From a virus, in IMG/VR virus record IMGVR_UViG_3300046004_002250, positions 1-63,279 of that record: 63,279 bases of DNA. One strand, 5' to 3'. The notes beneath the pieces are model-generated. The model did no database searches. It was not told the origin of the DNA and saw only the letters and a list, made by a program, of their open reading frames with translations. This document shows positions 1-62,368 of this stretch, piece after piece. Every line of letters begins with the position of its first letter. The stretch's first letter is position 1. The translations under genes were made by a program, and so were the position numbers.

Positions 1-1
1 A

Positions 2-412: not shown

Positions 413-450
413 TTGACAACTTCACCCAAACTGACAGACACACTTTTTCC

Positions 451-1242
451 ATGAACACACGCCAACTCATTCAACTCTCCTCCCGTCTCAACGGGGCACT
501 CAACCAATTTGCCCTGGTGGCTAATGCCAGTGGGGAATACCCGTGGCAGCAGCAGCAGCGCGAGAAGCGCAATGGTCGCATGGTCAAGGCGGGCGTGGGT
601 GCCGCTGTGCTCGGTGGTGCCGGAATCTACGGCCATCAGAGCGTGATGAACCGCGCTGCCGCCGCTGGTCCGGTGCGTGCCCGTGATGCTTACAAGTCCG
701 TGGGCAATGAGGTGATGGACAAAGTGAAGCCTGCTATGGATGCCGCTGGAGCGCGTGCGGGTGCTTATGGCAAGAATCTCAAAGGTGCCTATCAGGGTGC
801 GCGTGCCGGTGCTGCTGGCATGGGCTGGAAAAAACCCGGCATGGGTGTGGGCCGCGCTGCGATGGCGGCCCTCAAAGGCGTGCGCTTCTCTACCGCTGAA
901 CGTCTGGTCGAACTGGAAGCGCAGTTGGATGGGGCGCTGGTGGAGTTTGCGGAGCAGCCATCCAACAAAAAGAAAAAACTGGCAATCGCTGGTGGTGCTG
1001 CAGCCGGGATTGGTGCGGGTGCTTATCTTGGTGACCGCGCCATCATGGGTGCCGCCAAGAAGAAGTATGGATTCACCCCAACTCGCGCCAATGCTTACGG
1101 TGATGCCGTCACCAGCGGCATGCAGGCAGGAAAGCGCGGCCTGAAAAAAGGCATGGCTCAAGCATCTTATCATGCCGAGCCAGCCCTGCGCAAAATCAAG
1201 GGTGCGCTGGGTCTGCGTAAAGTCGTGGGCAAGCTCAAGTAA
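451..1242 (+). CDS. Gly/Ala-rich basic protein with two LxxF modules (copy A)
   Basis: 263 aa, not a family I recognise. It is built of two units. Each has an RLDGAL-type helix ending in LNQF (499-510) or LVEF (937-948), a Lys/Arg/Gln-rich stretch, then a Gly/Ala-rich zipper-like segment. The C-terminal 60 residues are nearly identical to those of the 61519 gene, while the central part has diverged and carries small indels. There is no Shine-Dalgarno; the leader 431-450 is CACAC/T-rich, like the leaders of the capsid genes. It lies between the giant protein and the 1270 gene. A role as minor head or ejection protein is inference. Confidence 0.8.
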   Translation: MNTRQLIQLSSRLNGALNQFALVANASGEYPWQQQQREKRNGRMVKAGVGAAVLGGAGIYGHQSVMNRAAAAGPVRARDAYKSVGNEVMDKVKPAMDAAGARAGAYGKNLKGAYQGARAGAAGMGWKKPGMGVGRAAMAALKGVRFSTAERLVELEAQLDGALVEFAEQPSNKKKKLAIAGGAAAGIGAGAYLGDRAIMGAAKKKYGFTPTRANAYGDAVTSGMQAGKRGLKKGMAQASYHAEPALRKIKGALGLRKVVGKLK

Positions 1243-1269
1243 TCCATCATCCCTCATGCCACCGCCGCC

Positions 1270-2253
1270 ATGACATCCCTCTCCCAACTCTCCCGCTTGC
1301 TCACGCAGTTTGAAAAACTGGATCTTGGTTACACCTATGACGACAGTTACCCCTGTCTGGCATCATCGGGTGACTCCAAAGCACCGAAGATTCAGTATCC
1401 GAATCTGTATGTGAACCGGGTGAAGGATGATGTCATGGCGGTGCCGGAGACGGGCACGGCGCTGGTGGAATACAAGATCACCGGCCGCAACATGAACCAG
1501 CGGGATGGCAAGAAAAAGTATGGCATGGATGTCGAGATCCGCAGCTTTGACCCGCAAGCCGGAGCCAAGCTGCTGGCCAAGGCTGGCAAACCCGGCGCTG
1601 CCAAAACCCTAATGCTGATGGCGCAGGGTGAGGTGACGGAGTTTGCTGGAGGTTACATGAACACGAATGACGGAGTGCAAAAGGAGCGCGGGGTGGTGGC
1701 GCATCTGAAACGCAACGCGGCTACTTATGCCAGCATTCCGCTTTTTCTCCCCACACCTGCTGATGACGTTTTAAGCAATTTAATTCCGGCGGCTGGTGCT
1801 GGAATTGACCGGCTTCTCAGGAAGAATAACAACATCCGCAAAACCAGCTACGAGCCAAAGGTGGACAAGAAGGGTCGCGGCCTGTGGAAAGTCCAGCCGG
1901 ATGGCAAAGTGATCAAATTCTCCGACCGCACCCGTGATGGTGATGGGCAGTTTGTGGGGGCGGCGACGGGTGGGGCGGACCCGGTGACGATGCGGCAGGC
2001 GTATGGCAAGAAGCTGGCGGTGGGGGCGGGAGCGTCGGCACTGGCCGGGGCGGGGCTGCTCGGTGGCACGCAGGGCGGGCGCAAGCTGGCCAGCAAGGGA
2101 CTCAAGGTGGCGGGGGCCAAGCTGCGGGATCTGCGCGCTGGACTGGTGAGCCGCTCCAGCGGTGGCCGTGGCAAGGGCTTTATGCAGGGGGGGGCTGAGA
2201 AGGCTTCCGGGCGTGGGTCGATGCTGCAACGGGAGATGCGGCGCGGCGCGTGA
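1270..2253 (+). CDS. Virion-associated hypothetical protein, LTQF module (copy A)
   Basis: 327 aa. The N-terminus carries LLTQF (ending at 1311) followed by a Gly-Tyr-Thr-Tyr-Asp-Asp patch; a second site, VTEF, lies at 1633-1644. The C-terminal third is basic with a Gly/Ala-rich zipper-like segment (around 2010-2080) and ends in Gly/Arg-rich sequence. A diverged copy starts at 62369 and runs off the right edge. The next gene is the protease-scaffold, so it belongs to the head block. No known family is recognised. Confidence 0.8.
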   Translation: MTSLSQLSRLLTQFEKLDLGYTYDDSYPCLASSGDSKAPKIQYPNLYVNRVKDDVMAVPETGTALVEYKITGRNMNQRDGKKKYGMDVEIRSFDPQAGAKLLAKAGKPGAAKTLMLMAQGEVTEFAGGYMNTNDGVQKERGVVAHLKRNAATYASIPLFLPTPADDVLSNLIPAAGAGIDRLLRKNNNIRKTSYEPKVDKKGRGLWKVQPDGKVIKFSDRTRDGDGQFVGAATGGADPVTMRQAYGKKLAVGAGASALAGAGLLGGTQGGRKLASKGLKVAGAKLRDLRAGLVSRSSGGRGKGFMQGGAEKASGRGSMLQREMRRGA

Positions 2254-10478: not shown

Positions 10479-10833
10479 AATCAAGCTGACACTGCTGGCT
10501 CTGATCGGCCTTGGTGCATGGGTGGCGGATGCCAGTCAATCGCTGAATCTTCAAGGCTGGGATGAGGTGGGCCTCAAAGGCATCCTGCTGGCGGCGGTGT
10601 TCTTCATTGGCAAGCTGTTCCTGCAAAGCCAGCGGGATCACAAGGCGGAGATGACGGAGACCTGGAAACTGCACAAGGAGGAGAGCACAGCGCGGGAGGA
10701 GCGGATGTGCACGGCGCTGGACAAACATGCGGTGAGTCTGGAGAGGATTGCGGAGCTGAATGAGGAGCAGTTGCAGCACTTTCGTGGCTTTGTGAAAAAC
10801 GCGATCGAGGACAAGATGCGGCCGCATGGTTGA
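10447..10833 (+). CDS. Putative holin-like membrane protein
   Basis: 128 aa from ATG 10447 (a second ATG follows at once), overlapping the sigma-like gene by about 30 bp. There are two hydrophobic segments (around residues 12-27 and 42-58), then a long charged helix (residues 60-110) likely to be coiled coil. Two membrane helices and a charged tail next to a small lipoprotein gene suggest a holin, but sequence alone does not prove it. Confidence 0.5.
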   Translation: MMNFTEHFLTEIKLTLLALIGLGAWVADASQSLNLQGWDEVGLKGILLAAVFFIGKLFLQSQRDHKAEMTETWKLHKEESTAREERMCTALDKHAVSLERIAELNEEQLQHFRGFVKNAIEDKMRPHG

Positions 10834-10848
10834 CGCTGGGCGGCAGGA

Positions 10849-13354: not shown

Positions 13355-13696
13355 ATGGCCTCTCCCTTTGATGCAGCGTGGACTCTTGAGACAGAGGCTG
13401 CGGTGAATCAGATGGGGGAGGCCATTACGTTGGGTGATGTGGCGCTGACGGCGGTGGTGAGTGAAGTGGAGTCCAGCCCGACCCATCAGGGGCCGATGGT
13501 GGTGAACAGCGGGGTGCTGTTTCAGGTGTTTCTCACTCGGTTACAAGTTACTGAATGTTACCCTGATGACGGTGCGGCGGAACGGCTCAAGGGCAAGGTG
13601 GTGCTGCGTGGCACGCGGCGTGCACGGGTGCTGCGGGTGATCGATCTGGGTGGTGCTGGCGTGCAGCTTGATTGCGGGCCGGTGGGTGATCGTTGA
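13355..13696 (+). CDS. Head-tail joining (stopper-like) protein
   Basis: 113 aa. The size, the N-terminal helix and the C-terminal beta barrel pattern (RLKGKVVLRGTRRARVLRVIDLGGAGVQL) fit lambda FII-type connector proteins. It directly precedes the tail-terminator candidate, the canonical position. Confidence 0.5.
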   Translation: MASPFDAAWTLETEAAVNQMGEAITLGDVALTAVVSEVESSPTHQGPMVVNSGVLFQVFLTRLQVTECYPDDGAAERLKGKVVLRGTRRARVLRVIDLGGAGVQLDCGPVGDR

Positions 13697-13711
13697 CGGC
13701 GGCGGTGCTGC

Positions 13712-14164: not shown

Positions 14165-14185
14165 TGTTGACAGGGTGCGCTGGAT

Positions 14186-14643: not shown

Positions 14644-14662
14644 TTGACGGCGCGGGTGCTGC

Positions 14663-15382
14663 ATGAGTAAACATCCTGAACTTGATGAAGTGCTGCTGGC
14701 CTGGTGTGGGGGCGGTGACTGGCGTGTGCTGGGGCATCGTCTGCGACCGCTGACGCTGCTGCACATTGAACTGCTGCGCATGATCAACAGTGGGGTGGTG
14801 ACAGGCGGGAAGATGAACTTGCCGGAGCTGGATCTGGCGGCGCGGATTTGCAGCATGGACCCGTGGCGTGCAGGGCGCTGGCTGACGCGCAGGCGGAAGG
14901 GGTGGTGGCAGATATGGGAGCGGGCTCGGTTCACTTTGGTGCTGCTGCGCTGGTGGCGGGCACTGCCGGAGCAGTGGGGCATCATGACGAGTTATGCCGA
15001 GGCCACGCTGAAAGCGCCGGAGATGATGGTGCGTGAGCAGGCGGCGGCCGGGGCCTCTGAAAAGCGGGATGCGCCAGCGTTTCTGGATAGCTGGGCAGCG
15101 ATGGTGGAGGCTGGATTCCCGCACCGTGAGGTGGTGGGCGTGTGGCCTGCTTCACTGATTGGCTGGCTGCAGGAGACGCTGGCCAGCCGGGAAGGCGGAC
15201 GGAAATTCATCACCACGGAAGACCGTGAGTTGATGCGCAAAGCGGAGGCAGCGCGGGCCATGACTGACCCTGCGCCATCAAGCATCGAGGTGATGGCTCA
15301 ACGGGCGCGGCGAATGCGGGCGTTGACGCAGAGGGTTGTGCATGGCACTCCCGAATCTGCGCAATCTGGTCAACAGCAATAA
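14663..15382 (+). CDS. Tail assembly chaperone candidate
   Basis: 239 aa, Arg/Trp-rich in the middle, helical. It lies immediately before the tape measure gene and overlaps it by 41 bp, the position of tail assembly chaperones (lambda G/GT). No frameshift product is apparent. TTGAC (14644-14648) is 14 nt before the ATG, just behind the terminator T-run. Confidence 0.5.
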   Translation: MSKHPELDEVLLAWCGGGDWRVLGHRLRPLTLLHIELLRMINSGVVTGGKMNLPELDLAARICSMDPWRAGRWLTRRRKGWWQIWERARFTLVLLRWWRALPEQWGIMTSYAEATLKAPEMMVREQAAAGASEKRDAPAFLDSWAAMVEAGFPHREVVGVWPASLIGWLQETLASREGGRKFITTEDRELMRKAEAARAMTDPAPSSIEVMAQRARRMRALTQRVVHGTPESAQSGQQQ

Positions 15383-33694: not shown

Positions 33695-33714
33695 GTTGAT
33701 AGGGCGTTAGTGAG

Positions 33715-34224
33715 ATGCAGACAAAATTAATGGAGATGAGCCAAAGGTTAGATTCGGCGCTGAACGAGTTTTACTATCCGAACATGCCGGCCTTGGCTGC
33801 GGCAGTGAAAATGAAGGGGTCTGGCATTGGCCGCCGTAAGTGGCAGAAAGTGTTCAGAGATGCCCGCAAAGAGCATCCTAAACCGGCGGAATGGTTGACC
33901 GATCCCTCAGTGAAGAGTTTCCGTGGCAAGGTGTTTAAGGCGCCTGTGGCGACTCCGCACGATACGTTCAAGGAACAATATCGGACACATGCCTACCCGT
34001 TGCTCGAAATCCAAAAGCGTTATGGCACAGGTGAAGGCCATGCGAAAGTGGCACGCACGATGGGGTTCACCACGAATCGGCAGGGCTTCGTCTCTCGCGG
34101 AGAGGCACAGCAACGGGCATGGAAAAAAGGGATTCGGATTGATGATCCGGAAGCACCGTGGAGGAAGAAATCTTGGAAAGGTCTTCACTCATCTGACATG
34201 CGTGGTCACTATGGCCCGCCGTGA
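33715..34224 (+). CDS. Isolated rightward gene, putative packaged cargo protein
   Basis: 169 aa, basic. The N-terminus MQTKLMEMSQRLDSALNEF carries the RLD.AL.xF motif (LNEF at 33760-33771) shared with the Gly/Ala-rich virion proteins. The remainder has HPKPAEWL, VARTMGFTTNRQGF and PWRKKSW, unknown. It stands alone among leftward genes and has TTGAT (33696-33700) exactly 14 nt before the ATG. Its last 158 bp overlap the converging 34067 gene. Confidence 0.7.
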   Translation: MQTKLMEMSQRLDSALNEFYYPNMPALAAAVKMKGSGIGRRKWQKVFRDARKEHPKPAEWLTDPSVKSFRGKVFKAPVATPHDTFKEQYRTHAYPLLEIQKRYGTGEGHAKVARTMGFTTNRQGFVSRGEAQQRAWKKGIRIDDPEAPWRKKSWKGLHSSDMRGHYGPP

Positions 34225-34465
34225 TCCATCCGTGAAGATAGGGGGCATAAGCGGGCACATCAAGTGGGGCGCCTGATGCTTTCACAAAGTCCGCTGGGGA
34301 CATGCTTTTGACGCATTTGTGAGTATCGTAATCAAAAAGTTTAACGCTATCATCTTTGTAGAAGAAGCGTGCGGCGTATTCTTGCCCATTTACGGTGACA
34401 TGATCTGAGGTGTTAGATATATGCCACAAGGAGCGGAGAGCATCGGGTGAGTAAGATTGAAGCAT
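34067..34465 (-). CDS. Hypothetical protein overlapping the 33715 gene
   Basis: 132 aa. The first 80 residues (VNGQEYAARFFYKDDSVKLF) look like a normal small beta protein. The last 50 are antisense to the 33715 gene and low-quality, suggesting that an inserted cassette replaced the original 3' end. Confidence 0.5.
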   Translation of the reverse strand: MLQSYSPDALRSLWHISNTSDHVTVNGQEYAARFFYKDDSVKLFDYDTHKCVKSMSPADFVKASGAPLDVPAYAPYLHGWITAGHSDHACQMSEDLSKISSSTVLPDHQSESLFSMPVAVPLRERRSPADSW

Positions 34466-34500
34466 GGGTTAAGATAAGAGGCTGGAATAACGGTTCAAGC

Positions 34501-34719
34501 TCATGATTTGTTGGCTGGGACGCCTTCGCGGATTTTCTTTTCAAAGATGCAATGTTCACCGTCAGTGCGAATCCAGCGGTAGCCGTTTTTGAGCAGGTTG
34601 CTGAGTTCGGTGGAGTGTGCATCTGCGGACAGGTAAACACTTTTTGGCACTGGCACGGCGAGCATGGGATTGACGATGTGCAACGGCATTGTGGCGTAGT
34701 GATACAGATCGGAAATCAT
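34501..34719 (-). CDS. Small hypothetical protein
   Basis: 72 aa; ends NGYRWIRTDGEHCIFEKKIREG, resembling small phage proteins of the DNA-metabolism region. Its ATG overlaps the stop of the ParB-like gene. Confidence 0.5.
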   Translation of the reverse strand: MISDLYHYATMPLHIVNPMLAVPVPKSVYLSADAHSTELSNLLKNGYRWIRTDGEHCIFEKKIREGVPANKS

Positions 34720-36320
34720 TTGGGTTGGAGGGTGATGGGGTCGAGGTGTTTGAGGGAGCCGGGGAGTTTGCTGCCGGTGGCGGCGCGGACGTAGGCGGCG
34801 GGGAGGTCAAACTTGGTGAGGGTTGAGATGTGGGTCATTTCAGCGATGAAGGCGGGGCTGGCGATGTCGCTCTGGCGCTCGGTGTGGGCGCGGTCACGGA
34901 GACGGCGGATGATGACGTTGCAGACGCTGTCCCAAAGCGCGTCAATCGTGGTTTTAAGGTCTTGGTTCTGGAGTTGGTGAAACTCATCCCAGGTCTTGGG
35001 ATTGACGCTGTTGGCGTTGGAGTCGGTGCCAAAGCTGGTGGCGAGTATGAGCAGGGAATCGGTGCCTAATCCAAGGTGGCCAAACTTACAGGCATCAAGG
35101 TGCAGGCGCAGGTCATCGAGGACGAGGCTGTAGCGTTTACCTTGCAGGCGGGTGATGCTGGCGTGGATGGCTTCGGCGGGATCTTTGATGCCGTCTTGGC
35201 TGGAGGGTTTGGGGAGAGGTTTGCTGTTGGGGCCAGTGGGTTCTGGGGCAATTTTCCAAGTGAGTTTGACTTTACCGTTTTCTTCCTCAAGGAAGGGTTC
35301 GGCTACGGGGTCTGATTTCTTGGAAGTTTTCCAGTTATGGAAGTTCCATTGGTTCCGAAGTTTGAGAGTGGACCCATCTGCCAGCGTGACGGGATCGGGA
35401 TCGTAGGATGCAGAGATGGCGTAGTAGCCTTTGGGGGCTTTGGCGATGGCGGCCTGCCACTCGGCGTCACGGGCGAGGTTTTTGCGTTTATTGAAGCAGG
35501 CAGGGTTGAGGCATTGGGCGCACTTGGTCACTTTGGCATCAGCAAACTCGGTGTTGCTGAACAGATCGCTGGCGACGCTGCTGGTGGCGCAACCGCTGGG
35601 GCCGCAGCCTTCGATGAAGGTGGCGGGGTTATCGAGCCATTTGGCGTCTTTGAGTGAGCAACTGAGACTAGACAGCCATGAAACGACTTCGGAATGGCTG
35701 GGGCTTTCATAGCCATCTACGACCCACTCGCTGTGGAAATGCTCCTGCAGTTCGGGACTCAGGGCGGCGACGAGTTCCATGGTGGCGATGGGCAGGTTGT
35801 GGATGCTGCTTTCGGGGTCTTGCCAGGCGGTGTGGATGCTGTCGGTGAGGGCGCAGAGGCGCATCCGGCGTTTGACCCATGAGTCGGGCCGGCCAAGCAT
35901 GGCGGCGATGGATTCCGGGGTGCTGCCGGGCAGTTCAGTGAGTCGGCGGATCTGAGCGGCTTCCTCGCGTGGTTCGGGGTTTTCACGCTGCAAGTTTTCG
36001 ATGGCGAGCATGGCTTCAATTTCGGCATCAGAGAGATCACGGACGATGCAGTCGAGGGAGAGCCCGGCGAGTTTGGCGGCGTGCCAGCGGCGGGCTCCAG
36101 CGCCGAGTTGGTAGCGGTCGGGCTTGGTGGGATGCGGGCGGACGGTGACGGGCTGGATCTGGCCGTGGCTGCGCATGGAGTCGGCAAGGCCGCGGCAGGA
36201 CTCAGGTGTGATCTGCCGGTTGTGCGGATGGGGATCGATGGATTTAGTGGCGATCCATTGGCGAGTGCCGTCGGTGATGGTGGTTTGGGCGGTGGGTTTT
36301 GGGGTGGGTTTGGTTTTCAT
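34716..36320 (-). CDS. ParB/Spo0J-like nuclease-domain protein
   Basis: 534 aa. Residues about 25-125 are the ParB-like domain: IDPHPHNRQ, LADSMRSHGQIQPVTVRP, LGAGARRWHAAKLAG and AIENLQRENPEPREEA. An HTH-like region follows (SIAAMLGRPDSWVKRRMRL, about 135-155). A central cluster C-GPSGC and CAQCLNPAC may bind zinc. The C-terminal half is unique. It may act in DNA segregation, replication control or transcription. Confidence 0.75.
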   Translation of the reverse strand: MKTKPTPKPTAQTTITDGTRQWIATKSIDPHPHNRQITPESCRGLADSMRSHGQIQPVTVRPHPTKPDRYQLGAGARRWHAAKLAGLSLDCIVRDLSDAEIEAMLAIENLQRENPEPREEAAQIRRLTELPGSTPESIAAMLGRPDSWVKRRMRLCALTDSIHTAWQDPESSIHNLPIATMELVAALSPELQEHFHSEWVVDGYESPSHSEVVSWLSSLSCSLKDAKWLDNPATFIEGCGPSGCATSSVASDLFSNTEFADAKVTKCAQCLNPACFNKRKNLARDAEWQAAIAKAPKGYYAISASYDPDPVTLADGSTLKLRNQWNFHNWKTSKKSDPVAEPFLEEENGKVKLTWKIAPEPTGPNSKPLPKPSSQDGIKDPAEAIHASITRLQGKRYSLVLDDLRLHLDACKFGHLGLGTDSLLILATSFGTDSNANSVNPKTWDEFHQLQNQDLKTTIDALWDSVCNVIIRRLRDRAHTERQSDIASPAFIAEMTHISTLTKFDLPAAYVRAATGSKLPGSLKHLDPITLQPK

Positions 36321-36340
36321 GTTGATACGTGGGTGGTGGT

Positions 36341-36466
36341 ATGAATCGAGATTTGACGCGATTGAATCGCAGACTGGATGCGGCGCTGACTCAGTTTGGA
36401 GTCACTGAGTTTGCCAAGATGTCGAAGGACACTTTTAAGGCGGTCTGGCGGCGTTCGCGGTTGTGA
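36341..36466 (+). CDS. 41-aa isolated rightward gene with tandem LTQF/VTEF motif
   Basis: A short gene found by its start signal: TTGAT (36322-36326), 14 nt, ATG 36341, stop TGA 36464-36466. The peptide begins MNRDLTRLNRRLDAALTQF and continues GVTEFAKMSK, ending RRSRL. It repeats the N-terminal motif of the 33715, 40490 and 451 genes, giving LTQF (36386-36397) and VTEF (36401-36412). It diverges from the ParB-like gene with 20 bp between starts. Either a minimal cargo peptide or a truncated cargo gene. Confidence 0.55.
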   Translation: MNRDLTRLNRRLDAALTQFGVTEFAKMSKDTFKAVWRRSRL

Positions 36467-36515
36467 TCCAAGCGTGGGTCATCAAAGAGAGTTGGATCGA
36501 GGTAGGGTGTTGAGA

Positions 36516-36902
36516 TCATCGTGATTTGCAAAAAAACGGGCGGTCGAAGGGGTCATCGAAATAGATGTTTTCCGCGCCACGGGAGGTTTCAAAAATGAGG
36601 CAATCGCGCTGGAGGGCGATCATGTCGTCGCGCTCCAATTCACGCGGGCCGGAACGTGGCAGATGCTGCAAGCCAACAATGCCCTGGGAGATTTCCAGCA
36701 CACAGCGTGCGCCGCTGGCTTTGGGTTTGCCGGTGCTGTTGCCGTGGATCATGCTGGCGTGCGCGGCTTGCAGCAAGACGCCGGTGCAGTCATGGATCTG
36801 CTTGCCTTGGATCAAGCGGACGGTGAGACCGCTTTTGAGGTTAGCTTTGCAGTAGTAAATCGTGATTGGTTCTTTGGGTGTGGCGCGGAGGAGGTGTGTC
36901 AT
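36516..36902 (-). CDS. Hypothetical protein
   Basis: 128 aa, mixed alpha/beta (ITIYYCKANLKSGLTVRLI; RDCLIFETSRGAENIYFDDP). Family unknown; co-oriented with and overlapping the next upstream gene by 4 bp. Confidence 0.5.
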   Translation of the reverse strand: MTHLLRATPKEPITIYYCKANLKSGLTVRLIQGKQIHDCTGVLLQAAHASMIHGNSTGKPKASGARCVLEISQGIVGLQHLPRSGPRELERDDMIALQRDCLIFETSRGAENIYFDDPFDRPFFCKSR

Positions 36903-37168
36903 GGTGAGTTGCGGTTTGGGTTGGGGATGGAAAAAAGGGCGTCGTAGGGGCCGTGGCTGTCTTTGCGGCGTTCAGCCCAGACGATGAGAACACGGGGCTT
37001 CATGTGCTCTGGCACGGGTGTGCCGGGGATCTTGCCGGGTTTGTATTTGCCGCGGTCAAAGCGCTCTTTGGGCAAGCTGGCCAAGCTGTGACCTTGAACG
37101 GGGTTGAACAGGGAATCGCGCAAGGCAGCGGTGAACTGTCGCTTGGTGAGGATGGTGTCGTATTTCAT
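36899..37168 (-). CDS. Hypothetical protein
   Basis: 89 aa from ATG 37168; KYDTILTKRQFTAALRDS start and a MKPRVLIVWAERRKDSHGPYDALFSI C-terminal part. No family recognised. Coupled to both neighbours by ATGA overlaps. Confidence 0.5.
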   Translation of the reverse strand: MKYDTILTKRQFTAALRDSLFNPVQGHSLASLPKERFDRGKYKPGKIPGTPVPEHMKPRVLIVWAERRKDSHGPYDALFSIPNPNRNSP

Positions 37169-37371
37169 GGTTGGCAGTGGAATTTCCAGATTGAATCTTC
37201 TTTGCCGGAGGTGATGCAGAGGTAGCGGGCGACGAGGGTTGTGTTGCCTGCGATCGTGTAGCCAAAGACGCAAAATTGTCCGGCGAAGAAGCGGCCGTCT
37301 GGGCCGGTGGAGACGATGAGTTCAGGTGACTTGCTCATCTCGGACATGGTCATGGTTTCGGTTAGAATCAT
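37165..37371 (-). CDS. Small hypothetical protein
   Basis: 68 aa from ATG 37371 (other in-frame ATGs a few codons on); GRFFAGQFCVFGYTIAG beta segment. It follows the methyltransferase stop by a few bases. Confidence 0.5.
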   Translation of the reverse strand: MILTETMTMSEMSKSPELIVSTGPDGRFFAGQFCVFGYTIAGNTTLVARYLCITSGKEDSIWKFHCQP

Positions 37372-37375
37372 GGGA

Positions 37376-38194
37376 TTAGGCGGCGAAATCGAAGTCGAGT
37401 TGGCCGCGGTTGGCGGTGATGCGGGCCTCGCGTTCGGCGGTGGTGGCGGCGATGGCGGCGGCGATTTTTTGTAGTTCAGCGGTGGCGGTGCGGGCGGCGT
37501 CTTCGGCGCGTTCGACGGCGGTGCGGCGGTAGGGGTGGAGGACGCCAACGAGGGTGGTTTCGTTGCGGTGTTCTTCCAGACTCAGGCTGTTGCCCCAGAT
37601 CACATTGGCGGGCACACCGCAGAGGGTGAGTTGGATGTAGGTGGCCATGAACATCTTGGGGTCAACGTCCACGGCGGTGAGCCAGTAGTGCCAGGGCATG
37701 AAGCCTTTTTCATGGAGCACGTTGGTGGTGGCGATGGCCATCGCTCCGGCACCGCAGGCGGGCTCGCAGATGGTGAGGCGGCGGTCGGGATCGGGTTGTT
37801 GCTCGCCCATCGTCATGCGGGCCATCAGGTCGCAGACGTGTTTTGGGGTGAAGAATTGGCCGTTCCATGAGGAGAGCAGTTCAAGTTCGCTAGCGACACA
37901 GCCGAGGAAATCATAGCGTTCGCGGTCGAGGCCCATGACGAGGTGGGCCATGGCCTCGCGAAACTTGGCGGGGTATTTGTAGCGGGCTTCGATCGAGAGA
38001 AATTCTTTTTCCTTTTCGGTATTCATCTCGCCGGTTTGGAATTTGCAGACGGCTTGCGACAAGCTCAGGTAGGCGAGGTTGAGGAAGTCGCTGAACGTCT
38101 CCCACATGGAGCGCGATCCGAAGGAGGTCTCTTCCAGGCAGGTGGCAAAGGTGTGGTGGTGTTTGTGGGAAAAGTGAGATGATTTCATGGGCAT
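37376..38194 (-). CDS. N-6 adenine DNA methyltransferase-like protein
   Basis: 272 aa. HsdM-type signatures: NGQFFTPKHVCDLM (111-124) and SAM motif I ICEPACGAGAM (142-152), then AVDVDPKMF. Where the catalytic N/D-PP-Y/F should be, the sequence is WGNSLSLE (200-207), so catalysis is uncertain; similar GN-S/T-L variants occur in phage and plasmid proteins. A C-terminal coiled coil (residues 225-260) replaces the usual end. A leftward terminator lies directly upstream. Confidence 0.7.
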   Translation of the reverse strand: MPMKSSHFSHKHHHTFATCLEETSFGSRSMWETFSDFLNLAYLSLSQAVCKFQTGEMNTEKEKEFLSIEARYKYPAKFREAMAHLVMGLDRERYDFLGCVASELELLSSWNGQFFTPKHVCDLMARMTMGEQQPDPDRRLTICEPACGAGAMAIATTNVLHEKGFMPWHYWLTAVDVDPKMFMATYIQLTLCGVPANVIWGNSLSLEEHRNETTLVGVLHPYRRTAVERAEDAARTATAELQKIAAAIAATTAEREARITANRGQLDFDFAA

Positions 38195-38217
38195 AAAAAA
38201 ACCGCCGGATGGCGGTT
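38195..38217 (-). terminator. Leftward rho-independent terminator
   Basis: AACCGCC-ATCC-GGCGGTT stem followed by a T-run in leftward reading, separating the 38309 gene from the methyltransferase. Confidence 0.85.
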
Positions 38218-38308
38218 GGTGGGTGGAGGATGTTGGTGGGATGATTAGAAGGCGGGAAGGGCCATGCGTGCCGGCTGTTCATGCAGGTGCCACATGAAAT
38301 GCTCAACA

Positions 38309-38602
38309 TCAGCGCCAGTCCACTGGCTGGCTGGTTTGGGTGTCTGATTTGAAACGGTTCGGCTCATCTTCGGTGATCTCACAGACCAAATGCTCAGGCA
38401 CTCCATAGAGCACATTGCAGGTGGTCAGCGAGTTGCGCCATGTTGCGCGCTCCACAGTTGCGAGGCCGTTTCCATTCGTGGTCACTTTCACGGACTCGCC
38501 CGTCGAGAAGTTGCAATATGTTCCAGCCAGCGGAGACGCAAGCCGAACAAATCGGATGCAGGCAACGGCTCTAGGAGTCGGTGGAGTATTCATAGCTTTC
38601 AT
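38309..38602 (-). CDS. Hypothetical protein
   Basis: 97 aa; AGTYCNFSTGESVKV and VPEHLVCEITEDE segments, small beta protein. Coupled to the upstream gene by a 4-bp overlap. Confidence 0.45.
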   Translation of the reverse strand: MKAMNTPPTPRAVACIRFVRLASPLAGTYCNFSTGESVKVTTNGNGLATVERATWRNSLTTCNVLYGVPEHLVCEITEDEPNRFKSDTQTSQPVDWR

Positions 38603-39042
38603 TTCGCCGTCGCCTGATCCGAAGCGTTCTCTAGCGGGTGTGTCTCAAGAGCGGCCATCGCTGATTCCCACGCTTCGCGAATGCGGCGGCAGTCGCCATT
38701 TGTGACCTGGATTTCCACGTCCATATCCCAATCTTCAAAATCAGGCTGATGCTGTTCGCCAATGAGTCGTGTGACGTTCACGCATTTGATGAGCGCGGCA
38801 CGCATGTCGTCCACGGCTCTTTCGGCTTTGCGTGCTCGCATCTTCCATACGCTTGCCATGTTGATTTCGAGTATGCGGTCTTGAGTGGCGTGACTGTTGA
38901 GGATTCGCGCGCACCAGCCGGTGTAGCGTTCGAGAGCTTCTAAGCTGGGTTCAGCATCGAAAGTCACGCTCACGGTGTCGTTGACTTGATCTTGATGCCG
39001 CAGTGTGGCTTTGACTTCGAGTTGGGATTTACCTTTGGGCAT
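38599..39042 (-). CDS. Hypothetical protein
   Basis: 147 aa, charged and helical from residue 30 to 95, beta-rich at the start. No family recognised. Its ATG touches the stop of the ACP-like gene. Confidence 0.5.
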   Translation of the reverse strand: MPKGKSQLEVKATLRHQDQVNDTVSVTFDAEPSLEALERYTGWCARILNSHATQDRILEINMASVWKMRARKAERAVDDMRAALIKCVNVTRLIGEQHQPDFEDWDMDVEIQVTNGDCRRIREAWESAMAALETHPLENASDQATAK

Positions 39043-39290
39043 CAGGGTTGGGGGTCGAGGATGTCTTCGAGGTAGCGGTGGATGGCGCCGGGAGTGGTGA
39101 AGGTGTCGATGATGTCTTCGGGGATGGTGAGCTTGTAATGGTCTTCGACGGCGAGGATCACATCGAGCATGTCGGTGGGATCAGCGCCGAGATCGGTGAA
39201 GAGGGCTTCACGGGTGAGGTCGGTGAGGTCGATGCCGGTGTGGTCGAGTTGGTTGAGCAGGAGTTGTTGCAGGCCGGAGAAGTGAATCAT
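39042..39290 (-). CDS. Acyl-carrier-protein-like protein without the carrier Ser
   Basis: 82 aa. The whole length follows the ACP four-helix pattern: an initial helix, FTDLGADPTDMLDVILAVEDHYKLTIPED and TTPGAIHRYLEDI. The serine that receives phosphopantetheine (GADSL in ordinary ACPs) is Pro38 here. So it is an ACP fold that should not carry acyl groups in the normal way, although Thr39 is adjacent. It lies beside the sliding clamp. Confidence 0.65.
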   Translation of the reverse strand: MIHFSGLQQLLLNQLDHTGIDLTDLTREALFTDLGADPTDMLDVILAVEDHYKLTIPEDIIDTFTTPGAIHRYLEDILDPQP

Positions 39291-39325
39291 GAGAGTTGAG
39301 GGTTTGAGTTCGGTCAGGTGTCACC

Positions 39326-40465
39326 TTATTCAGTGATGCGCATGGGCATGAGCACGGTCTGGCGGCCGTCTGGCTGGCCGCCAAGCATGGGGCTATTGGA
39401 ATCACGCAGGCGAAGATAGGTGCCGCTGAAATCCAGACAGGGCAGGAGCAGGAAGGTGTCGAAAGCAATGTTGAAGGGTTCACTGGTGCCTTTCCATGTG
39501 CCTGCGGGGAAGGGCTCACAAAGAACGGACGGGGTGCCGGAACTGGTTTTGACCGCGGCGGTGACGCTATGGTCGGCGTGCAGATGGAAGGTGGTGGTGG
39601 TTTCAGCGCGGGTGCTGCGCTGGTGGAAGAGCAGAGTTTCGCGAGTGGTGTCGGTGAGGGTGACGAAGGTGGTCATGTCCTCGCTTTTAGGGATGACCTG
39701 GGCGTAGTTGGGATAGGTCCCATCGATGAGGGTGTGCTTGAGCAGGCAGTTGTCGAAAGGTTGGGCGAGGATGGTGCAGCGTGCAAAATCATCATTTGCA
39801 ATGTTCATGGGCTTTGAGAGCCAGAAGGGAATGGGTTTGTCGTCTTCCGGCAGGAGGGGGCTGGTGAGGCATTTCAGGGCACGAGGAGGTATGATGAAGC
39901 TGGCAGGCAGGGTAGTGCCGGGTGCGGGTGGGGTGAAGCCGAGATAGCGGCCATTGGTGGCGACAGTGGTGCCGTTTGGAGCAAAGAAGACGCCATTGAG
40001 GACGTAACGGGTCTCATCTGTGGACATGAAGGCGCTGGAGGCGATGGCATCATGCAGGGTTTTGGGATTGAGCCAGCCGCCGAGATTGAAGCCGGTGGTA
40101 TCAAAAGGCGGGAACTGGTCATGATCGATGCGTGCCTGCGGGCATAGGGAGGCGGTGCCGGTGCTGGTGAAGGCGCGCATGTGGTGATTGAGCTGGCAGA
40201 ACTCAATCCAGCCATCCTTGGGAAGGCTGCGGGTGATGGCGAGAAACCATTCAATGCTGCAGGAGGTGGGTTCAGTGAGGCTGGTGGGCTCGGGGAGTTG
40301 CAGGGGCCAGTGGAACTGGTTTTCCAGATCGCTGGAGGCGAGGACGATGCGGGTCTCGTTGATGGGGTGAATGTGCAGGTGGGTGAGCACGGGCAGTTTC
40401 ACTTTGGAATTGATTGAGGTGAGCAGGGCGCGGAGACGGCGGAGGGTGGGGGTGGTGAGTTTCAT
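39326..40465 (-). CDS. dnaN: DNA polymerase III beta sliding clamp-like protein
   Basis: 379 aa, usual length for DnaN. Landmarks are LLTSINSKVKLPVLTHLHI near the start, STDETRYVLNGVFF in the middle and the ending VLMPMRITE (DnaN proteins end in VMPMRL). It should form the processivity ring for a host or phage polymerase. It is one of the few essential replication genes placed in the long leftward region; the divergent 40490 gene starts 24 bp away. Confidence 0.85.
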   Translation of the reverse strand: MKLTTPTLRRLRALLTSINSKVKLPVLTHLHIHPINETRIVLASSDLENQFHWPLQLPEPTSLTEPTSCSIEWFLAITRSLPKDGWIEFCQLNHHMRAFTSTGTASLCPQARIDHDQFPPFDTTGFNLGGWLNPKTLHDAIASSAFMSTDETRYVLNGVFFAPNGTTVATNGRYLGFTPPAPGTTLPASFIIPPRALKCLTSPLLPEDDKPIPFWLSKPMNIANDDFARCTILAQPFDNCLLKHTLIDGTYPNYAQVIPKSEDMTTFVTLTDTTRETLLFHQRSTRAETTTTFHLHADHSVTAAVKTSSGTPSVLCEPFPAGTWKGTSEPFNIAFDTFLLLPCLDFSGTYLRLRDSNSPMLGGQPDGRQTVLMPMRITE

Positions 40466-40489
40466 GGGAGTTGATGAGGGTTGGGTGTT

Positions 40490-41035
40490 ATGTTATTACA
40501 GAGACTGACGCTGCTTGAGGAGAGATTGGATGGTGCTTTGACGCTGTTGTGGACGCGGGAGATTGATGACAAAAAATATGCGGACGGAATGCGGACTGAT
40601 AAGTTCCGGTTGAAGGATGGGTCACTGATCAGCGTGGAGCGTGACGAGCCGCGGGCAAAAACCCGCTACTACAAGGTGGAAGATCCCGGTGGTGCTCATG
40701 TGAGGTATTCCACCCATCAGGGAAAGAATAAAAAGCGCATGAAGGTGGACTGGCTTGTCCACGATAAAAACATGAACGGGATGCCTACCCGCGGGCAGGT
40801 GGCATCCGTTCAGAGGGCAACGCGAAAGGTGATTGGTCGCGCTGACAAGATGAGAATGACTGCTTACACAGATCCAGTGCCCTTTGGGCGGATGCCGGTT
40901 GAGTCACTGGTCAAAATGTATGGCCGGGATAGATTCAAAGGCATCAAGACCGGAGGTGATCTTTCAGCGTCGTTTCGCCGGAAGGACAAGTGGGGTGCTC
41001 TGGGGGCTTTGGTGCGCAAGCCGAAGCTGCGCTGA
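40490..41035 (+). CDS. Isolated rightward gene, putative packaged cargo protein
   Basis: 181 aa from ATG 40490, set by TTGAT (40471-40475) exactly 14 nt upstream. The N-terminus MLLQRLTLLEERLDGAL repeats the RLDGAL peptide of the virion proteins. The rest is basic (KKYADGMRTDKFRLKDGS, RRKDKWGALGALVRKPKLR), with no known family. It stands alone among leftward genes; its last 92 bp overlap the converging 40944 gene. Confidence 0.7.
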   Translation: MLLQRLTLLEERLDGALTLLWTREIDDKKYADGMRTDKFRLKDGSLISVERDEPRAKTRYYKVEDPGGAHVRYSTHQGKNKKRMKVDWLVHDKNMNGMPTRGQVASVQRATRKVIGRADKMRMTAYTDPVPFGRMPVESLVKMYGRDRFKGIKTGGDLSASFRRKDKWGALGALVRKPKLR

Positions 41036-54776: not shown

Positions 54777-54799
54777 AGTGTTGACGCTGCGGTGTGGGC

Positions 54800-55042: not shown

Positions 55043-55332
55043 TGCCGATCCAGGAACTCACGACTGAGGAGCAGGCCGCACGGGGCGTGCGCAGCTTCCT
55101 GCTGCAAGGGCAGATGACGCGCTGCCGCGTGGAGATGCAGTGGCAGGAGGAGGTGGACTATTCCGGTGCGCCGGAGTGGCGGGCACTGCCAGCGCCGGGC
55201 AATCGGGTGGTGATGGAAGAGCTGCTGGCGCTGCTGGCGGATTTGCGGCCGGTGATGATGGGGAGCCGTTTGGCCGTTTGGCCGGTTGACGCGGGTGGCG
55301 TGGCATGGGAAAGCCAACACTCAACCTGTTAG
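55042..55332 (+). CDS. Hypothetical protein before portal
   Basis: 96 aa; its ATG overlaps the gpW-like stop and its end overlaps the portal start by 28 bp. It begins TTEEQAARGVRSFLLQG; no family recognised. Confidence 0.5.
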   Translation: MPIQELTTEEQAARGVRSFLLQGQMTRCRVEMQWQEEVDYSGAPEWRALPAPGNRVVMEELLALLADLRPVMMGSRLAVWPVDAGGVAWESQHSTC

Positions 55333-57621: not shown

Positions 57622-57649
57622 GCTGCCAAGTTGACGTGGAGTGGCCAAC

Positions 57650-60600
57650 ATGGCTGACAACTCCAAAATTTCCGGCGGCGACCGCGCGCGCAATGCACTC
57701 ATCACCGGCACGGCCGGGGCTTATCTCGGCAGCATGGTGCTGGATGGGAAGCATAAAATTCCCAAGGCATTGCAGCGTCTGCTGCGCACACGGCGGCGCA
57801 CCATGACCGTGCATGGCGCACGGGCAGGCGGAGTGGCTGGCGCGGTGCTGGGAGCCACCAACAAAGGCAAGCGCAGTGAGACCGTGGACAGTGTGGCCAC
57901 GGGTGGTGACTGGAAATTCAGCGCCTTCATTGAAGACATGGTCTTCAAATCCCTGCCCAAAGAAGTGCAGGGCGAAGTGACGCGCTTTGTCGATGCCAAG
58001 GCAGGCACGCCGCTGGTGCATTACGGTATGACGGTGGCGGAACTGATCGGCAAAGCGGATGCCGAAAATTTGAAGTCGGCACGCAAAGCATTGGGCACCC
58101 TGCGCGCCAGTCGGGCACGGGAAGAGGTGATGGGCAAGATCAAGGGCGGCAGCAAATACATCCTGCTCATGAACGACCGCATTGTGGACGGGCATCACTT
58201 TTTGGCGAAAGCCGAGCGCGGCGCGATCACCAGCAGCCTGAACGTGCTGGATCTGACCCCGGCACGGTTGAGCACAGGGAAGACCACGGAGTTTGGGTTT
58301 CTGTCCATGCGCTCAAACCCAGATCGAGGCACACGGGCCACCAACTCAGATCCGAAGAAGGCTAAGTGGAAAGCTTTGATCGGCAGCGTTACGCCTGACG
58401 AGGCTAAAAAACTTGAAGGCCAGCACCAAAATGCTGAAGCAAAATCGAAAACGGTGAGGGATGCCCAACTGGTGATCGGCGGTGGCTTGGTTGGTCAAAA
58501 GCTGGTGCGTGAGGGGCGGGACAGACTAACTGGCCGCACAACTTTGTATCATGGCACGGACAAAGCCTCCGCGAAGAATATCCAGAAAACAGGGCTGAAA
58601 TCAGCGGACCGTGCGAAGACTCACGGAATTTCGGATGTGATCATGGGCGGTGGGAAGGAGTCGTTTAATCCGTTTGGCGGCAACAAGGCCGACATGCTCA
58701 AAAAGACGCGCAAGGGTGCTTTCTTGTCCCATGAAAAAGGCATGAATGGAGCGGGCCAGTATGCCGCTCAAAGTGCCTGGCTAAAGGAAGGCGGACGCCC
58801 ACTGAGCGCCGAAGATGTCAAAAAGATCATGGACGCCAAGGATAGCGGCAAAGGGATGGGAAAGGCTGTGGTTACGGCGGTGCGTAAAAAACTAGGACGT
58901 GACCTCATGCCGCTCACGCATCGGCACAAAGGCACCGTTTTGAAGTATCGCATGCCGCTGTGGCGGAAAGGATTGCAGAAAAATTTGATGCCGAATCCAG
59001 AGGTTGATCAACTGCTTGATCCAGTTGCTTCCTTCATGCTGAAAGACCGCACCAAAGTGATGAAGAACAAAGCACCGGAATCCTACCGCGTTGGCTCAAA
59101 GCATTACAAGGGGATGTCGATGAAGGAATGGAAACAGTATATCAAACTGCACCCCAAGCGTGCTGCCGCCGGTGCGGGCTTGGCAGTTGGTGGCGCGGCG
59201 ATGCTGGCTGGCAGCGGTGTCTATGCGAAGAAGGCATGGAAGGAACGCAAGGCGCGGAATGAAAAGCTCAAAGAGATGTCGGCGCGTTTGAGCCTGACGG
59301 CGTTCGCTGACCCCTCACGCAATCGCACGCGGGATCTGCGGGACAAGCTGGGGCTGGCGAAGGATGTGGGCGTGCTGGGCTTGATCGGTGGCGCGGGCTA
59401 CGGCGGGCACAAGCTTTATAAGCAGGGGCAGAAGGCGGTGACGGAGCTGACGCCTGCCGTGCGCCGCACCCTGGCGCGGGCGAATGTCGGGCTGCGTCAG
59501 GCGGGCAAGATTGGCAAGAGCTGGCGCAAGGCGGCGATTAGCACCAAAGAAACCCTGGGCACGGTGAACGATGCCGTGCAGCCAGCGGCGTCGATGAATC
59601 GCGGCATTGCCAAGGCGGGTCGCAAGATTGCGGTCGGGGCCAAGAAGATCGGCCAGATCAAGCTGTGGGCGGATGGGCGGAAGCTGACGCAGTTTGAAAC
59701 CGCACCGAAGCGTGACAAGCTGAGCCGTGCGCGTGACATCGCCGTGCTCGGTGGAGCGGCGGCGGCGACGGCTGGGGCGGGTTATCTGGTGCATCAGGGA
59801 CACAAGGTGGTGAAGGCGGTGGCACCGACCGTGAAGGACATGAAGGCAACGACGACGAACGTGCGCCATGCCACCCGCATCAGTGCGGATGTCGGGCGGG
59901 TGTATGGGGATCTGACACAACCGCTGCGTGAGCCGAAACGCTATCAGGCCAAGGTGCGCGGGGCATTCCGGCGCGGGAAGCGCAGTGCTGCGGCAGCGCC
60001 AGCACCAGGCTGGGCGCAGAAGGTGGTGCGCATCGGCAAGAAAATCCGGCTGCTGCAAGTCGGGCCGGAAGGCCAGATGAAGCTGACGCAGTTCAATATC
60101 ATCGGGGCCGCGGTGGGCACGGTGGCGGGGGCGATGCTGGGCGGCAAGGTGCGGGCACCGCTTTACCGGACGCTGTTAAAACGGAATCCTGAAAAGCCGC
60201 TGGGCAAGTGGGCCAAGCGTCGGGCGCGTGCTGGTGCGTATGCCGTGGAAAACGGCATGCCAGCCATCGGCGGTGCAGCGGGTGGCATGATTGGCCGCAA
60301 GCAGCAGGAGATGGGGGATCTGCGTGTGCTGCGTAAGTTTGGCAGCAGTGAGCAGCAGGCTGACCTGCACAGCAGCCGCTACATGGACTCCTGGGACAGT
60401 TTCATCGGCAAATCCAAGGGCTACCGCAAAAAGGATGTGAACGAATACCATCGCCTGCGGCGGCAGTTGGCGGATCATGAATCAGGCGCACGCAAGTTCG
60501 CGCCGGAGACCGTGAGCAAGATCCATGCCAGCATGAAAGACATCGAGGACAATCCGCTGGAAGCCACCACGGGGCAGATTGGGCGCAGCATCATGCGCAA

Positions 60601-61480
60601 GGCCAATACTGTGCGCATGGTGTCGGAGCGCGGCGGCGGTCTGGCGCATGATGCAGTCAAGCATCTGCGCGGCGACAAGCGTGAGAAGGATGCCTGGGGT
60701 CGCGAGAAAAAGCGTGAGTGGGAAAAGCCATGGTTCCAGCGCAAGCGCAATCAGCTTGTGGCAGGCGGGGCCATTCTGGCCACTGGTTTGGCTTACCGCA
60801 AGTTCCCGAAACTGCAGCGCGGAGTTGAGGGACTGAAAATCAAGGGCAAGGATGCCGTGAACAAAGTCTTTCCAGACACCTTTCCAGACAAGGGCACAGC
60901 CCATGCTGCGGCGATGACGGGCAAACCGCAGAGCACCAGCGCCATGATCGAGGAAGAGGCCAAAGCTCTGGCAGCCAAGCTGGCCAAGGATGCCAAAGAG
61001 GCGAAGGCACGCATCAAGGGCTCCAAGCTCAAGGTGGTCAAACCCAAGGCCAGCAGGCCAGTCAAGGGAGGCGACACGCCATCTTTGAATCTGGCGGCGT
61101 ATTTGGGCAAGGTCACCCGGTTCAGTGATCCACTGGATGCTGGCTGGGATCTGCGGGATGCGCGGGGCCGTTCGGCGCGGGTGTTTGCACCGGGCAGTCA
61201 GGGCCGTGATCGCAGGCCGAAGGAGTGGTATGAAAAGATCGACAACGAACGCAAGCTCTGGGCGGGTGCGGCACTGGCCGGCACGGGCCTGAGTGCAGCG
61301 GTCATGCACAAGCTGGGCGGCAAGAAACTGGTCACTGCCACAGAGCGGGCGGTGCAGGCTGAGCGAGCCAAGATCCGCAAGGCGCTGCAAGCCGTGCACA
61401 AGAAGCGGGCGGCCGCCGGTGGGTCGCCACCGTCCAACATTCGATTCATGCCCAAACCCTCCGCTGGGGCAGCGGCTTAA
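57650..61480 (+). CDS. Giant modular virion protein with ART-like domain (copy B)
   Basis: 1,276 aa from ATG 57650; TTGAC (57631-57635) is 14 nt upstream (the GTG at 57641 is less likely). Very basic, Gly/Ala/Lys/Arg-rich. Residues about 299-435 resemble an ADP-ribosyltransferase: LYHGTDKASAKNIQKTGL, GAFLSHEKGMNGAGQYAAQSA and GTVLKYRMP. From residue 500 on, five Gly/Ala-rich segments follow or adjoin [LV]TxF sites: VTRF 110, LTAF 549, LTQF 679, LTQF 812, VTRF 1155. I infer a polyprotein cut by the prohead protease and ejected with DNA; T4 Alt is a known packaged ART. Confidence 0.7.
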   Translation: MADNSKISGGDRARNALITGTAGAYLGSMVLDGKHKIPKALQRLLRTRRRTMTVHGARAGGVAGAVLGATNKGKRSETVDSVATGGDWKFSAFIEDMVFKSLPKEVQGEVTRFVDAKAGTPLVHYGMTVAELIGKADAENLKSARKALGTLRASRAREEVMGKIKGGSKYILLMNDRIVDGHHFLAKAERGAITSSLNVLDLTPARLSTGKTTEFGFLSMRSNPDRGTRATNSDPKKAKWKALIGSVTPDEAKKLEGQHQNAEAKSKTVRDAQLVIGGGLVGQKLVREGRDRLTGRTTLYHGTDKASAKNIQKTGLKSADRAKTHGISDVIMGGGKESFNPFGGNKADMLKKTRKGAFLSHEKGMNGAGQYAAQSAWLKEGGRPLSAEDVKKIMDAKDSGKGMGKAVVTAVRKKLGRDLMPLTHRHKGTVLKYRMPLWRKGLQKNLMPNPEVDQLLDPVASFMLKDRTKVMKNKAPESYRVGSKHYKGMSMKEWKQYIKLHPKRAAAGAGLAVGGAAMLAGSGVYAKKAWKERKARNEKLKEMSARLSLTAFADPSRNRTRDLRDKLGLAKDVGVLGLIGGAGYGGHKLYKQGQKAVTELTPAVRRTLARANVGLRQAGKIGKSWRKAAISTKETLGTVNDAVQPAASMNRGIAKAGRKIAVGAKKIGQIKLWADGRKLTQFETAPKRDKLSRARDIAVLGGAAAATAGAGYLVHQGHKVVKAVAPTVKDMKATTTNVRHATRISADVGRVYGDLTQPLREPKRYQAKVRGAFRRGKRSAAAAPAPGWAQKVVRIGKKIRLLQVGPEGQMKLTQFNIIGAAVGTVAGAMLGGKVRAPLYRTLLKRNPEKPLGKWAKRRARAGAYAVENGMPAIGGAAGGMIGRKQQEMGDLRVLRKFGSSEQQADLHSSRYMDSWDSFIGKSKGYRKKDVNEYHRLRRQLADHESGARKFAPETVSKIHASMKDIEDNPLEATTGQIGRSIMRKANTVRMVSERGGGLAHDAVKHLRGDKREKDAWGREKKREWEKPWFQRKRNQLVAGGAILATGLAYRKFPKLQRGVEGLKIKGKDAVNKVFPDTFPDKGTAHAAAMTGKPQSTSAMIEEEAKALAAKLAKDAKEAKARIKGSKLKVVKPKASRPVKGGDTPSLNLAAYLGKVTRFSDPLDAGWDLRDARGRSARVFAPGSQGRDRRPKEWYEKIDNERKLWAGAALAGTGLSAAVMHKLGGKKLVTATERAVQAERAKIRKALQAVHKKRAAAGGSPPSNIRFMPKPSAGAAA

Positions 61481-61518
61481 TTGACAACTTCACCCAAACT
61501 GACAGACACACTTTTTCC

Positions 61519-62328
61519 ATGAAAACACGCCAACTCATTCAACTCTCCTCCCGTCTCAACGGGGCACTCAACCAATTTGCCCTGGCAGCCAATGCCACCG
61601 GGGAATACCCATGGCAGCAGCAGCAGCGTGAAAAGCGCAACCGCCGTGTCGGTGGTGGGATTGTCGCTGCGGGCGTGCTGGGTGGTGCCGGTTATGCCGG
61701 ACATCGCAGCGTGATGCAACGCGGTGCTGCCGCTGGTCCGGTGCGCGCCGGTGATGCCTACAAAGCCGTGGGCAATGAGGCGCTGGACAAGGTGAAGACG
61801 GCTGGCGCTGCCGGTGCGGCCCGTGCGGCGACCTACGGCAAGAACGTCAAGGGTGCTTATCAGGGTGCGCGTGCTGGCACTGCGGGCCTGGGTTGGAAGA
61901 AACCCGGCATGGGTGTGGGTAAGGCGGCTCTGGCAGCCCTGAAAGGCGTGCGCTTTGGTGCGGCGCAGCGTTTGGTGGAACTCGAAGCGCAGTTGGATGA
62001 CGTGCTGGTGGAGTTTGGTTCCACTATGAAGCATTTGGTGGGTGACGATGAGCGCAAGAAAAAAGCTGCGCGGATCGGTGCCGGGGCAATAGCTGTCGGT
62101 GGGGGTGCTTTTGTAGGTGACCACGCCATCATGAGCGCGGCCAAGAAGAAATACGGATTCACTCCGACCCGCGCCAATGCTTACGGCGATGCCGTCACCA
62201 GTGGCATGCAGGCAGGAAAGCGCGGTCTTAAAAAAGGCATGGCTCAAGCATCTTATCATGCCGAGCCAGCCCTGCGCAAAATCAAGGGTGCGCTCGGTCT
62301 GCGTAAAGTCGCGGGCAGGCTCAAGTAA
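61519..62328 (+). CDS. Gly/Ala-rich basic protein with two LxxF modules (copy B)
   Basis: 269 aa, homologue of the 451 gene, with LNQF and LVEF in the same places. The N-terminal 25 and C-terminal 55 residues are nearly identical to copy A; the middle has replacements and indels (for example GSTMKHLVGDDERKKK in place of AEQPSNKKKK). The identical CACACTTTTTCC leader precedes it. The contrast of fixed ends and variable core suggests the ends do the targeting. Confidence 0.8.
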   Translation: MKTRQLIQLSSRLNGALNQFALAANATGEYPWQQQQREKRNRRVGGGIVAAGVLGGAGYAGHRSVMQRGAAAGPVRAGDAYKAVGNEALDKVKTAGAAGAARAATYGKNVKGAYQGARAGTAGLGWKKPGMGVGKAALAALKGVRFGAAQRLVELEAQLDDVLVEFGSTMKHLVGDDERKKKAARIGAGAIAVGGGAFVGDHAIMSAAKKKYGFTPTRANAYGDAVTSGMQAGKRGLKKGMAQASYHAEPALRKIKGALGLRKVAGRLK

Positions 62329-62368
62329 GGTTCATCCTCCATCCTTCATCCTTCCTCCTTCCTCCCTC

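What the first reader, a model, noticed from the sequence alone, without database searches (positions are those of the whole stretch)
33696..41035. Three isolated rightward genes embedded in the leftward region share start signal and N-terminal peptide
33715, 36341 and 40490 each lie alone among leftward genes, each start 20-24 bp from a divergent start codon, each use TTGAT-N14-ATG, and each begin with an RLD.AL helix like the Gly/Ala-rich virion proteins; the first two also keep the LNEF/LTQF part. Their bodies are otherwise unrelated. This looks like late-expressed morons whose products are loaded into the capsid by a shared tag. The 41-aa gene was found only through this signal.
Basis: partly seen in the sequence, partly recalled or inferred. 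Interest (0 to 1): 0.78.

Follow-up and report, generated by a model that had tools for sequence, protein, structure and literature searches.

The report
Shared leader tag on phage cargo genes
Three stray genes in an uncultured phage share a late-gene start signal and a 19-residue leader helix with the phage's head-region proteins; related phages carry different genes behind the same leader at the same sites, so they look like swappable proteins carried inside the virus particle, as in phage T4.

Summary
Genes 33715, 36341 and 40490 (+) each have TTGAT exactly 19 bases before ATG and a 19-residue N-terminal leader. A score matrix built only from head-region proteins ranks these three directly behind its own training proteins among 3,387 ORF starts. 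The reverse matrix, run over whole proteins, finds only the two head-cluster families encoded between portal and major head protein, including an internal second copy. Two independent relatives (G013, G007) carry genes with the same start signal and leader at the same sites but mostly different bodies; other relatives lack them. One allele pair (99% identical flank) switches exactly at the TTGAT. Corrections: the start signal is not private to the three genes but is the TTGAY-N14-ATG signal of many late genes (portal, tail region) and is absent from leftward genes; the 41-aa gene is a truncated relic of a 225-aa gene; the tight divergent spacing is not conserved. Most likely mechanism (inferred): late accessory proteins docked into the prohead by the leader and possibly injected, working like T-even internal proteins and P1 DarB. 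Virion location is untested, so this is analogy, not membership. Body functions are mostly unknown; one allele is ParB-like.

The parts
33696..33714 (+). TTGAT-N14 late-type start element of gene 33715
   Evidence: the break with allele L037 falls exactly before its first base
33715..34224 (+). 169-aa accessory gene; leader codons 33721-33777; body unrelated to the other tagged genes
   Evidence: absent in 99%-identical relative L037
36322..36340 (+). TTGAT-N14 start element of gene 36341
36341..36466 (+). 41-aa truncated relic of a 225-aa tagged gene (intact in G013/L041:13710-14387); leader codons 36347-36403
40471..40489 (+). TTGAT-N14 start element of gene 40490
40490..41035 (+). 181-aa accessory gene, leader codons 40499-40555; orthologue L041:18795-19340 (80% identity, dN 0.139, dS 1.02)
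451..1242 (+). head-cluster protein with N-terminal leader (460-516) and internal second copy (898-954)
61519..62328 (+). variant copy of the 451 protein at the other, overlapping contig end; leader 61528-61584, internal copy 61966-62022
1270..2253 (+). second head-cluster family; N-terminal leader intact in the G007/G008 homologues, shortened by 4 residues in the window
10830..10848 (+). TTGAC-N14 start element of late gene 10849
13693..13711 (+). TTGAC-N14 start element of late gene 13712
14167..14185 (+). TTGAC-N14 start element of late gene 14186
14644..14662 (+). TTGAC-N14 start element of late gene 14663
15323..15341 (+). TTGAC-N14 start element of late gene 15342 (949 aa, tape-measure-like size and position)
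54781..54799 (+). TTGAC-N14 start element of late gene 54800
55286..55304 (+). TTGAC-N14 start element of the portal gene 55305
57631..57649 (+). TTGAC-N14 start element of the 1,276-aa head-cluster gene 57650

Best explanation
The three genes are late-expressed accessory cargo genes. Shown: each starts with the phage's late-gene start element and a ~19-residue leader of the form LxxLxx[RQK]LDxALxxF, probably a helix, which elsewhere in these genomes occurs only in two protein families encoded between the portal and the major head protein. Shown: behind the leader, bodies are exchanged, lost or truncated between related phages at fixed sites. Inferred: the leader docks the protein onto an inner component of the prohead (scaffold, portal or shell) as in the head-cluster proteins, so the body is packaged in the capsid. 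More weakly inferred: the body is injected with the DNA and acts early against host functions or defences, which would explain why bodies are diverse and replaceable.
For: Exclusive sharing with head-cluster families, reciprocal matrices and shuffle control. Late start element shared with portal and tail-region genes in the window and relatives, absent at -19 in leftward genes. Same sites, same leader, different bodies in G007 (116 aa and 451 aa) and G013 (134 aa). Presence/absence: L037 and G014 lack the genes; the W/L037 switch is at CATG|TTGAT. Leader conserved as protein, not DNA: different codons for the same residues; 40490 pair dN 0.139 / dS 1.02. One body is ParB-like (phrog_1033, E 6.8e-6), a domain class named among virion-delivered effectors (PMC5512222).
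Against: No virion proteomics and no host. The 451 and 1270 families have no database match, so their virion status rests on gene order. Most bodies have no detectable relatives, so injection and function are guesses. No cleavage site after the leader was found. AlphaFold models were useless (mean pLDDT 35 and 38).
Confidence: 0.64

Rival explanations
1. The shared 5' end is an expression cassette only: late start element plus first 20 codons were copied together because they give good late translation, and the leader peptide has no docking role.
For: Start element and leader travel together; the allele switch falls exactly before TTGAT; 7 of 8 isolated genes use TTGAT.
Against: The leader is kept as amino acids while codons differ (dS of the leader 0.7-1.3 between orthologues); it also occurs inside the 451 and 1270 families, far from any start codon; most late genes with the same start element have no leader.
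Confidence: 0.12
2. The tagged proteins are minor head assembly factors or structural proteins that bind the same partner as the 451 and 1270 proteins but are not injected effectors.
For: Leader shared with head-cluster proteins; the G007 451-aa protein has a Gly/Ala-rich body like them.
Against: Bodies are replaced, truncated or absent in close relatives, unlike assembly factors; one body is ParB-like.
Confidence: 0.2
3. The resemblance is chance or a generic amphipathic N-terminus.
For: Short motif; a similar peptide occurs in an unrelated phage protein (L044).
Against: Score gap 19.0 versus 8.0 over 3,387 starts, reciprocal hits, independent recurrence in two relatives at the same loci with the same start element.
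Confidence: 0.02

Closest known systems
T-even phage internal proteins (IPI, IPII, IPIII, Alt) and their capsid targeting sequence
   Same: Diverse, dispensable proteins with a short conserved N-terminal leader; polymorphic content between relatives; genes recognisable by the leader (PMC9026906, PMC3012670, PMC12373910).
   Different: Leader is ~19 residues with a different pattern, not ~10 residues; it also occurs, even internally, in conserved head-cluster proteins; lambda-type portal and gpA-type terminase phage, not T4-like; no prohead-protease cleavage site identified; packaging not shown.
Phage P1 DarB N-terminal packaging signal
   Same: N-terminal 30 residues suffice to load a reporter into the capsid (PMC9024508).
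   Different: P1 Dar proteins show no common N-terminal consensus (same paper), whereas here the leader is shared by several unrelated proteins.
MuF polymorphic toxins and polyvalent proteins
   Same: Virion-linked anchor with exchangeable effector domains; ParB-like and ART domains among the effectors (PMC5512222; PMC5576092 listed).
   Different: Anchor here is a short leader on small separate genes, not a MuF domain or a giant multidomain protein; MuF was not detected in the proteins scanned.

Membership tests
T-even internal protein / capsid targeting sequence system | Short conserved N-terminal leader on otherwise unrelated proteins | tested here: met
T-even internal protein / capsid targeting sequence system | Leader homologous in sequence to the T4 leader (about 10 residues) | not tested
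   No direct alignment was run; by length and pattern (LxxLxx[RQK]LDxALxxF, ~19 residues) it looks different from published descriptions
T-even internal protein / capsid targeting sequence system | Polymorphic loci: content differs between close relatives | tested here: met
T-even internal protein / capsid targeting sequence system | Protein packaged in the head and injected | not testable with these tools
   needs purified virions
T-even internal protein / capsid targeting sequence system | Leader cut off by the prohead protease | not tested
   no protease identified; no conserved residue pattern after the leader noticed
T-even internal protein / capsid targeting sequence system | T4-like phage head genes | tested here: not met
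   lambda-family portal (PF05136), gpA-type terminase (PF05876), phrog_1005 major head protein
Morons / accessory genes | Own start/expression signal, placed among oppositely oriented genes, variably present | tested here: met
MuF polymorphic toxin | MuF domain fused to a variable toxin domain | tested here: not met
   no MuF hit in the tagged genes or the 451, 1270 and 57650 proteins

The most novel reading that the evidence does not exclude
An independently evolved capsid-loading code in a non-T4 phage lineage: one docking helix, used once or twice inside the phage's own head proteins and copied, together with a fixed-distance late start element (GTTGAY-N14-ATG), onto an open-ended set of exchangeable cargo proteins at dispersed loci.
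Probability: 0.5. Interest if true: 0.76.

Novelty: new variant of a known kind. Interest (0 to 1): 0.63.

Why it matters
A leader plus start-element signature lets one list candidate injected proteins directly from sequence in uncultured phages, as the T-even leader did for internal proteins. Finding the same motif inside conserved head proteins suggests where such leaders come from and narrows the search for the docking partner. It would also give a new short tag for loading proteins into a capsid.

Tried and rejected
Genome collections with terminase and head-protein profiles: no prophage or host found. Phage GenBank records: no DNA match, only distant head-protein matches; none for the tagged genes (the 0.3 E-value hit is noise). 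Leader-codon scan of IMG/VR returned the known relatives plus one unrelated holin-like protein, L044. A second composite scan was mis-spaced by one base in my pattern, so its 7 hits are meaningless and the scan was lost. AlphaFold of L041:13710 and of 40490 with its orthologue failed (pLDDT 35 and 38); the Foldseek list from it is not used. I suspected an acetyltransferase fold for 40490 and an ADP-ribosyltransferase fold for L041:13710 by eye; no tool supported either, so neither is claimed. Helical moment is high for most leaders but not for 40490 and some others, so amphipathicity is weaker evidence than the sequence match. My first matrix run had misaligned anchors and was replaced.

Full report
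WHAT IS THERE. The window is a 63,279-base IMG/VR record of a phage with a lambda-family portal, gpA-type large terminase, phrog_1005 major head protein, integrase, primase-type zinc ribbon, sliding clamp, ParB-like protein and DNA ligase. Its first 2.2 kb and last 2.2 kb are 85% identical, and relatives G002 and G006 have that region once, so the record is probably a circular genome of about 61 kb closed with two strain variants. Late/structural genes run rightward; 33-54 kb is a leftward replication-type block. Genes 33715, 36341 and 40490 are the three rightward genes inside the first part of that block.

THE LEADER. The three proteins begin MQTKLMEMSQRLDSALNEF, MNRDLTRLNRRLDAALTQF and MLLQRLTLLEERLDGALTLLW; the head-cluster protein at 451/61519 begins MNTRQLIQLSSRLNGALNQF. 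A position matrix trained only on head-cluster families (451 family of the window, G003 and G007; 1270 family of G007 and G008) was run on every ORF start of at least 35 codons in the window: after the training proteins, ranks 3-5 of 3,387 are 36341 (27.9), 33715 (21.5) and 40490 (19.0), then 8.0. In G007 the top non-training starts of 3,275 are the two isolated genes (31.5, 25.4; next 12.5). In G013 the two best are 13710 and 10044; 18795 ranks fourth with a weaker 10.8. The reverse matrix (isolated genes only) returns the head-cluster starts. Shuffling matrix columns drops the mean score from 22.2 to -4.6 (maximum 7.2 of 200). Scanning whole proteins with the isolated-gene matrix hits, above 13 bits, only the 451 family at its N-terminus and again near residue 150-169, the G007 1270-family N-terminus, and an internal site of the G003 1270-family protein; shuffled proteins give 0.2 such hits. 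In the 451 family both copies are kept between the window and G007 although much of the rest has diverged.

THE START SIGNAL. TTGAT-N14-ATG is not special to the three genes. TTGA[CT] lies exactly at -19 in front of eight further rightward genes of the window, including the portal (55305), the 1,276-aa gene 57650 and the 949-aa gene 15342, and at -19 in front of none of about 40 leftward genes (Fisher p = 0.0005, binomial against base density 5e-21). The same strand bias appears in G002, G006, G003, G005, G007 and G008; G013 and G014 have too few rightward genes for the automatic count. Whole-sequence search: window 13 (+) against 2 (-), G007 15 against 1, with 0.95-1.85 expected per strand; in G013 the only 3 (+) matches are the three tagged genes. 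Aligned elements read about GTTGACRNGGNGNG...GGGC-ATG with no second conserved box upstream. Isolated genes use TTGAT in 7 of 8 cases; window structural genes use TTGAC, though two G007 late genes use TTGAT. Whether this is a promoter or a translation signal is open; the fixed distance to ATG inside tightly packed gene runs favours translation.

VARIABLE BODIES AT FIXED SITES. G013 (locus L041, terminase 93% identical) has a tagged 134-aa gene after the terminase (10044), a tagged 225-aa gene (13710) and a tagged 181-aa gene divergent from the sliding clamp (18795). The third is an orthologue of 40490 (80% identity; dN 0.139, dS 1.02: a protein under selection). The second matches 36341 over its first 37 codons, after which the window gene stops: the 41-aa gene is a relic. 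The first has a body unrelated to 33715, with a ParB-like match (phrog_1033, E 6.8e-6). G007 (terminase 69% identical) has tagged genes at the same two sites, of 116 and 451 aa, again with unrelated bodies. L037 is 99% identical to the window up to base 33695 and again from 34718, but carries 272 bp without a tagged gene in between; identity ends at CATG, just before TTGAT. G014 has the flanking genes but no tagged gene. The genes are thus accessory and exchangeable.

HOW IT MOST LIKELY WORKS. Shown here: shared late start element, shared leader, restriction of the leader to head-cluster proteins, and body exchange. Inferred: the leader binds a prohead component, packaging the body. Weaker inference: the body enters the cell with the DNA. 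This is how T-even internal proteins (PMC9026906, PMC3012670, PMC12373910) and P1 DarB (PMC9024508) work. It works like that system but is not filed as a member: the phage is not T4-like, the leader differs in length and pattern, and packaging was not testable.

LIMITS. No host, no expression data, no proteomics. Head-cluster status of the 451 and 1270 proteins rests on gene order. Relatives covering the 33-41 kb region number only two independent lineages plus fragments. dN/dS over the leader uses few codons. Gene starts in the window and relatives are my own calls by codon usage, not curated annotation.

Noticed in passing
window 10830-10848, 13693-13711, 14167-14185, 14644-14662, 15323-15341, 54781-54799, 55286-55304, 57631-57649: A conserved element GTTGACRNGGNGNG...GGGC at a fixed distance (TTGA at -19) precedes many late genes, even inside packed operons, and is absent from leftward genes; same in relatives. 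Promoter or translation signal unknown.
   Followed up: partly
window 1-2174 and 61069-63276: The two contig ends are 85% identical versions of one region that relatives carry once: probably a circular genome closed with two strain variants, not a true duplication.
   Followed up: partly
window 57650-61480, residues about 295-325: The 1,276-aa protein next to the portal has a weak KptA/ADP-ribosyltransferase-like stretch (LYHGTDKASAKNIQKTGL; Pfam E 0.02, below cut-off).
   Followed up: partly
window 9972-10478: A sigma-70 region-2-like protein (Pfam E 2.9e-4, just below cut-off) sits among the late genes; a candidate late transcription factor. No relative was found in G007, which uses the same start element.
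   Followed up: no
window 1270-2253 and homologues in G003, G007, G008: This family has conserved ends (C-terminal RDGDGQFV..TGGADPVTMRQAYG) around a variable middle that in G003 starts with a copy of the leader.
   Followed up: partly
window 898-954 and 61966-62022: Internal second copy of the leader inside the 451-family proteins, conserved in all homologues seen.
   Followed up: yes
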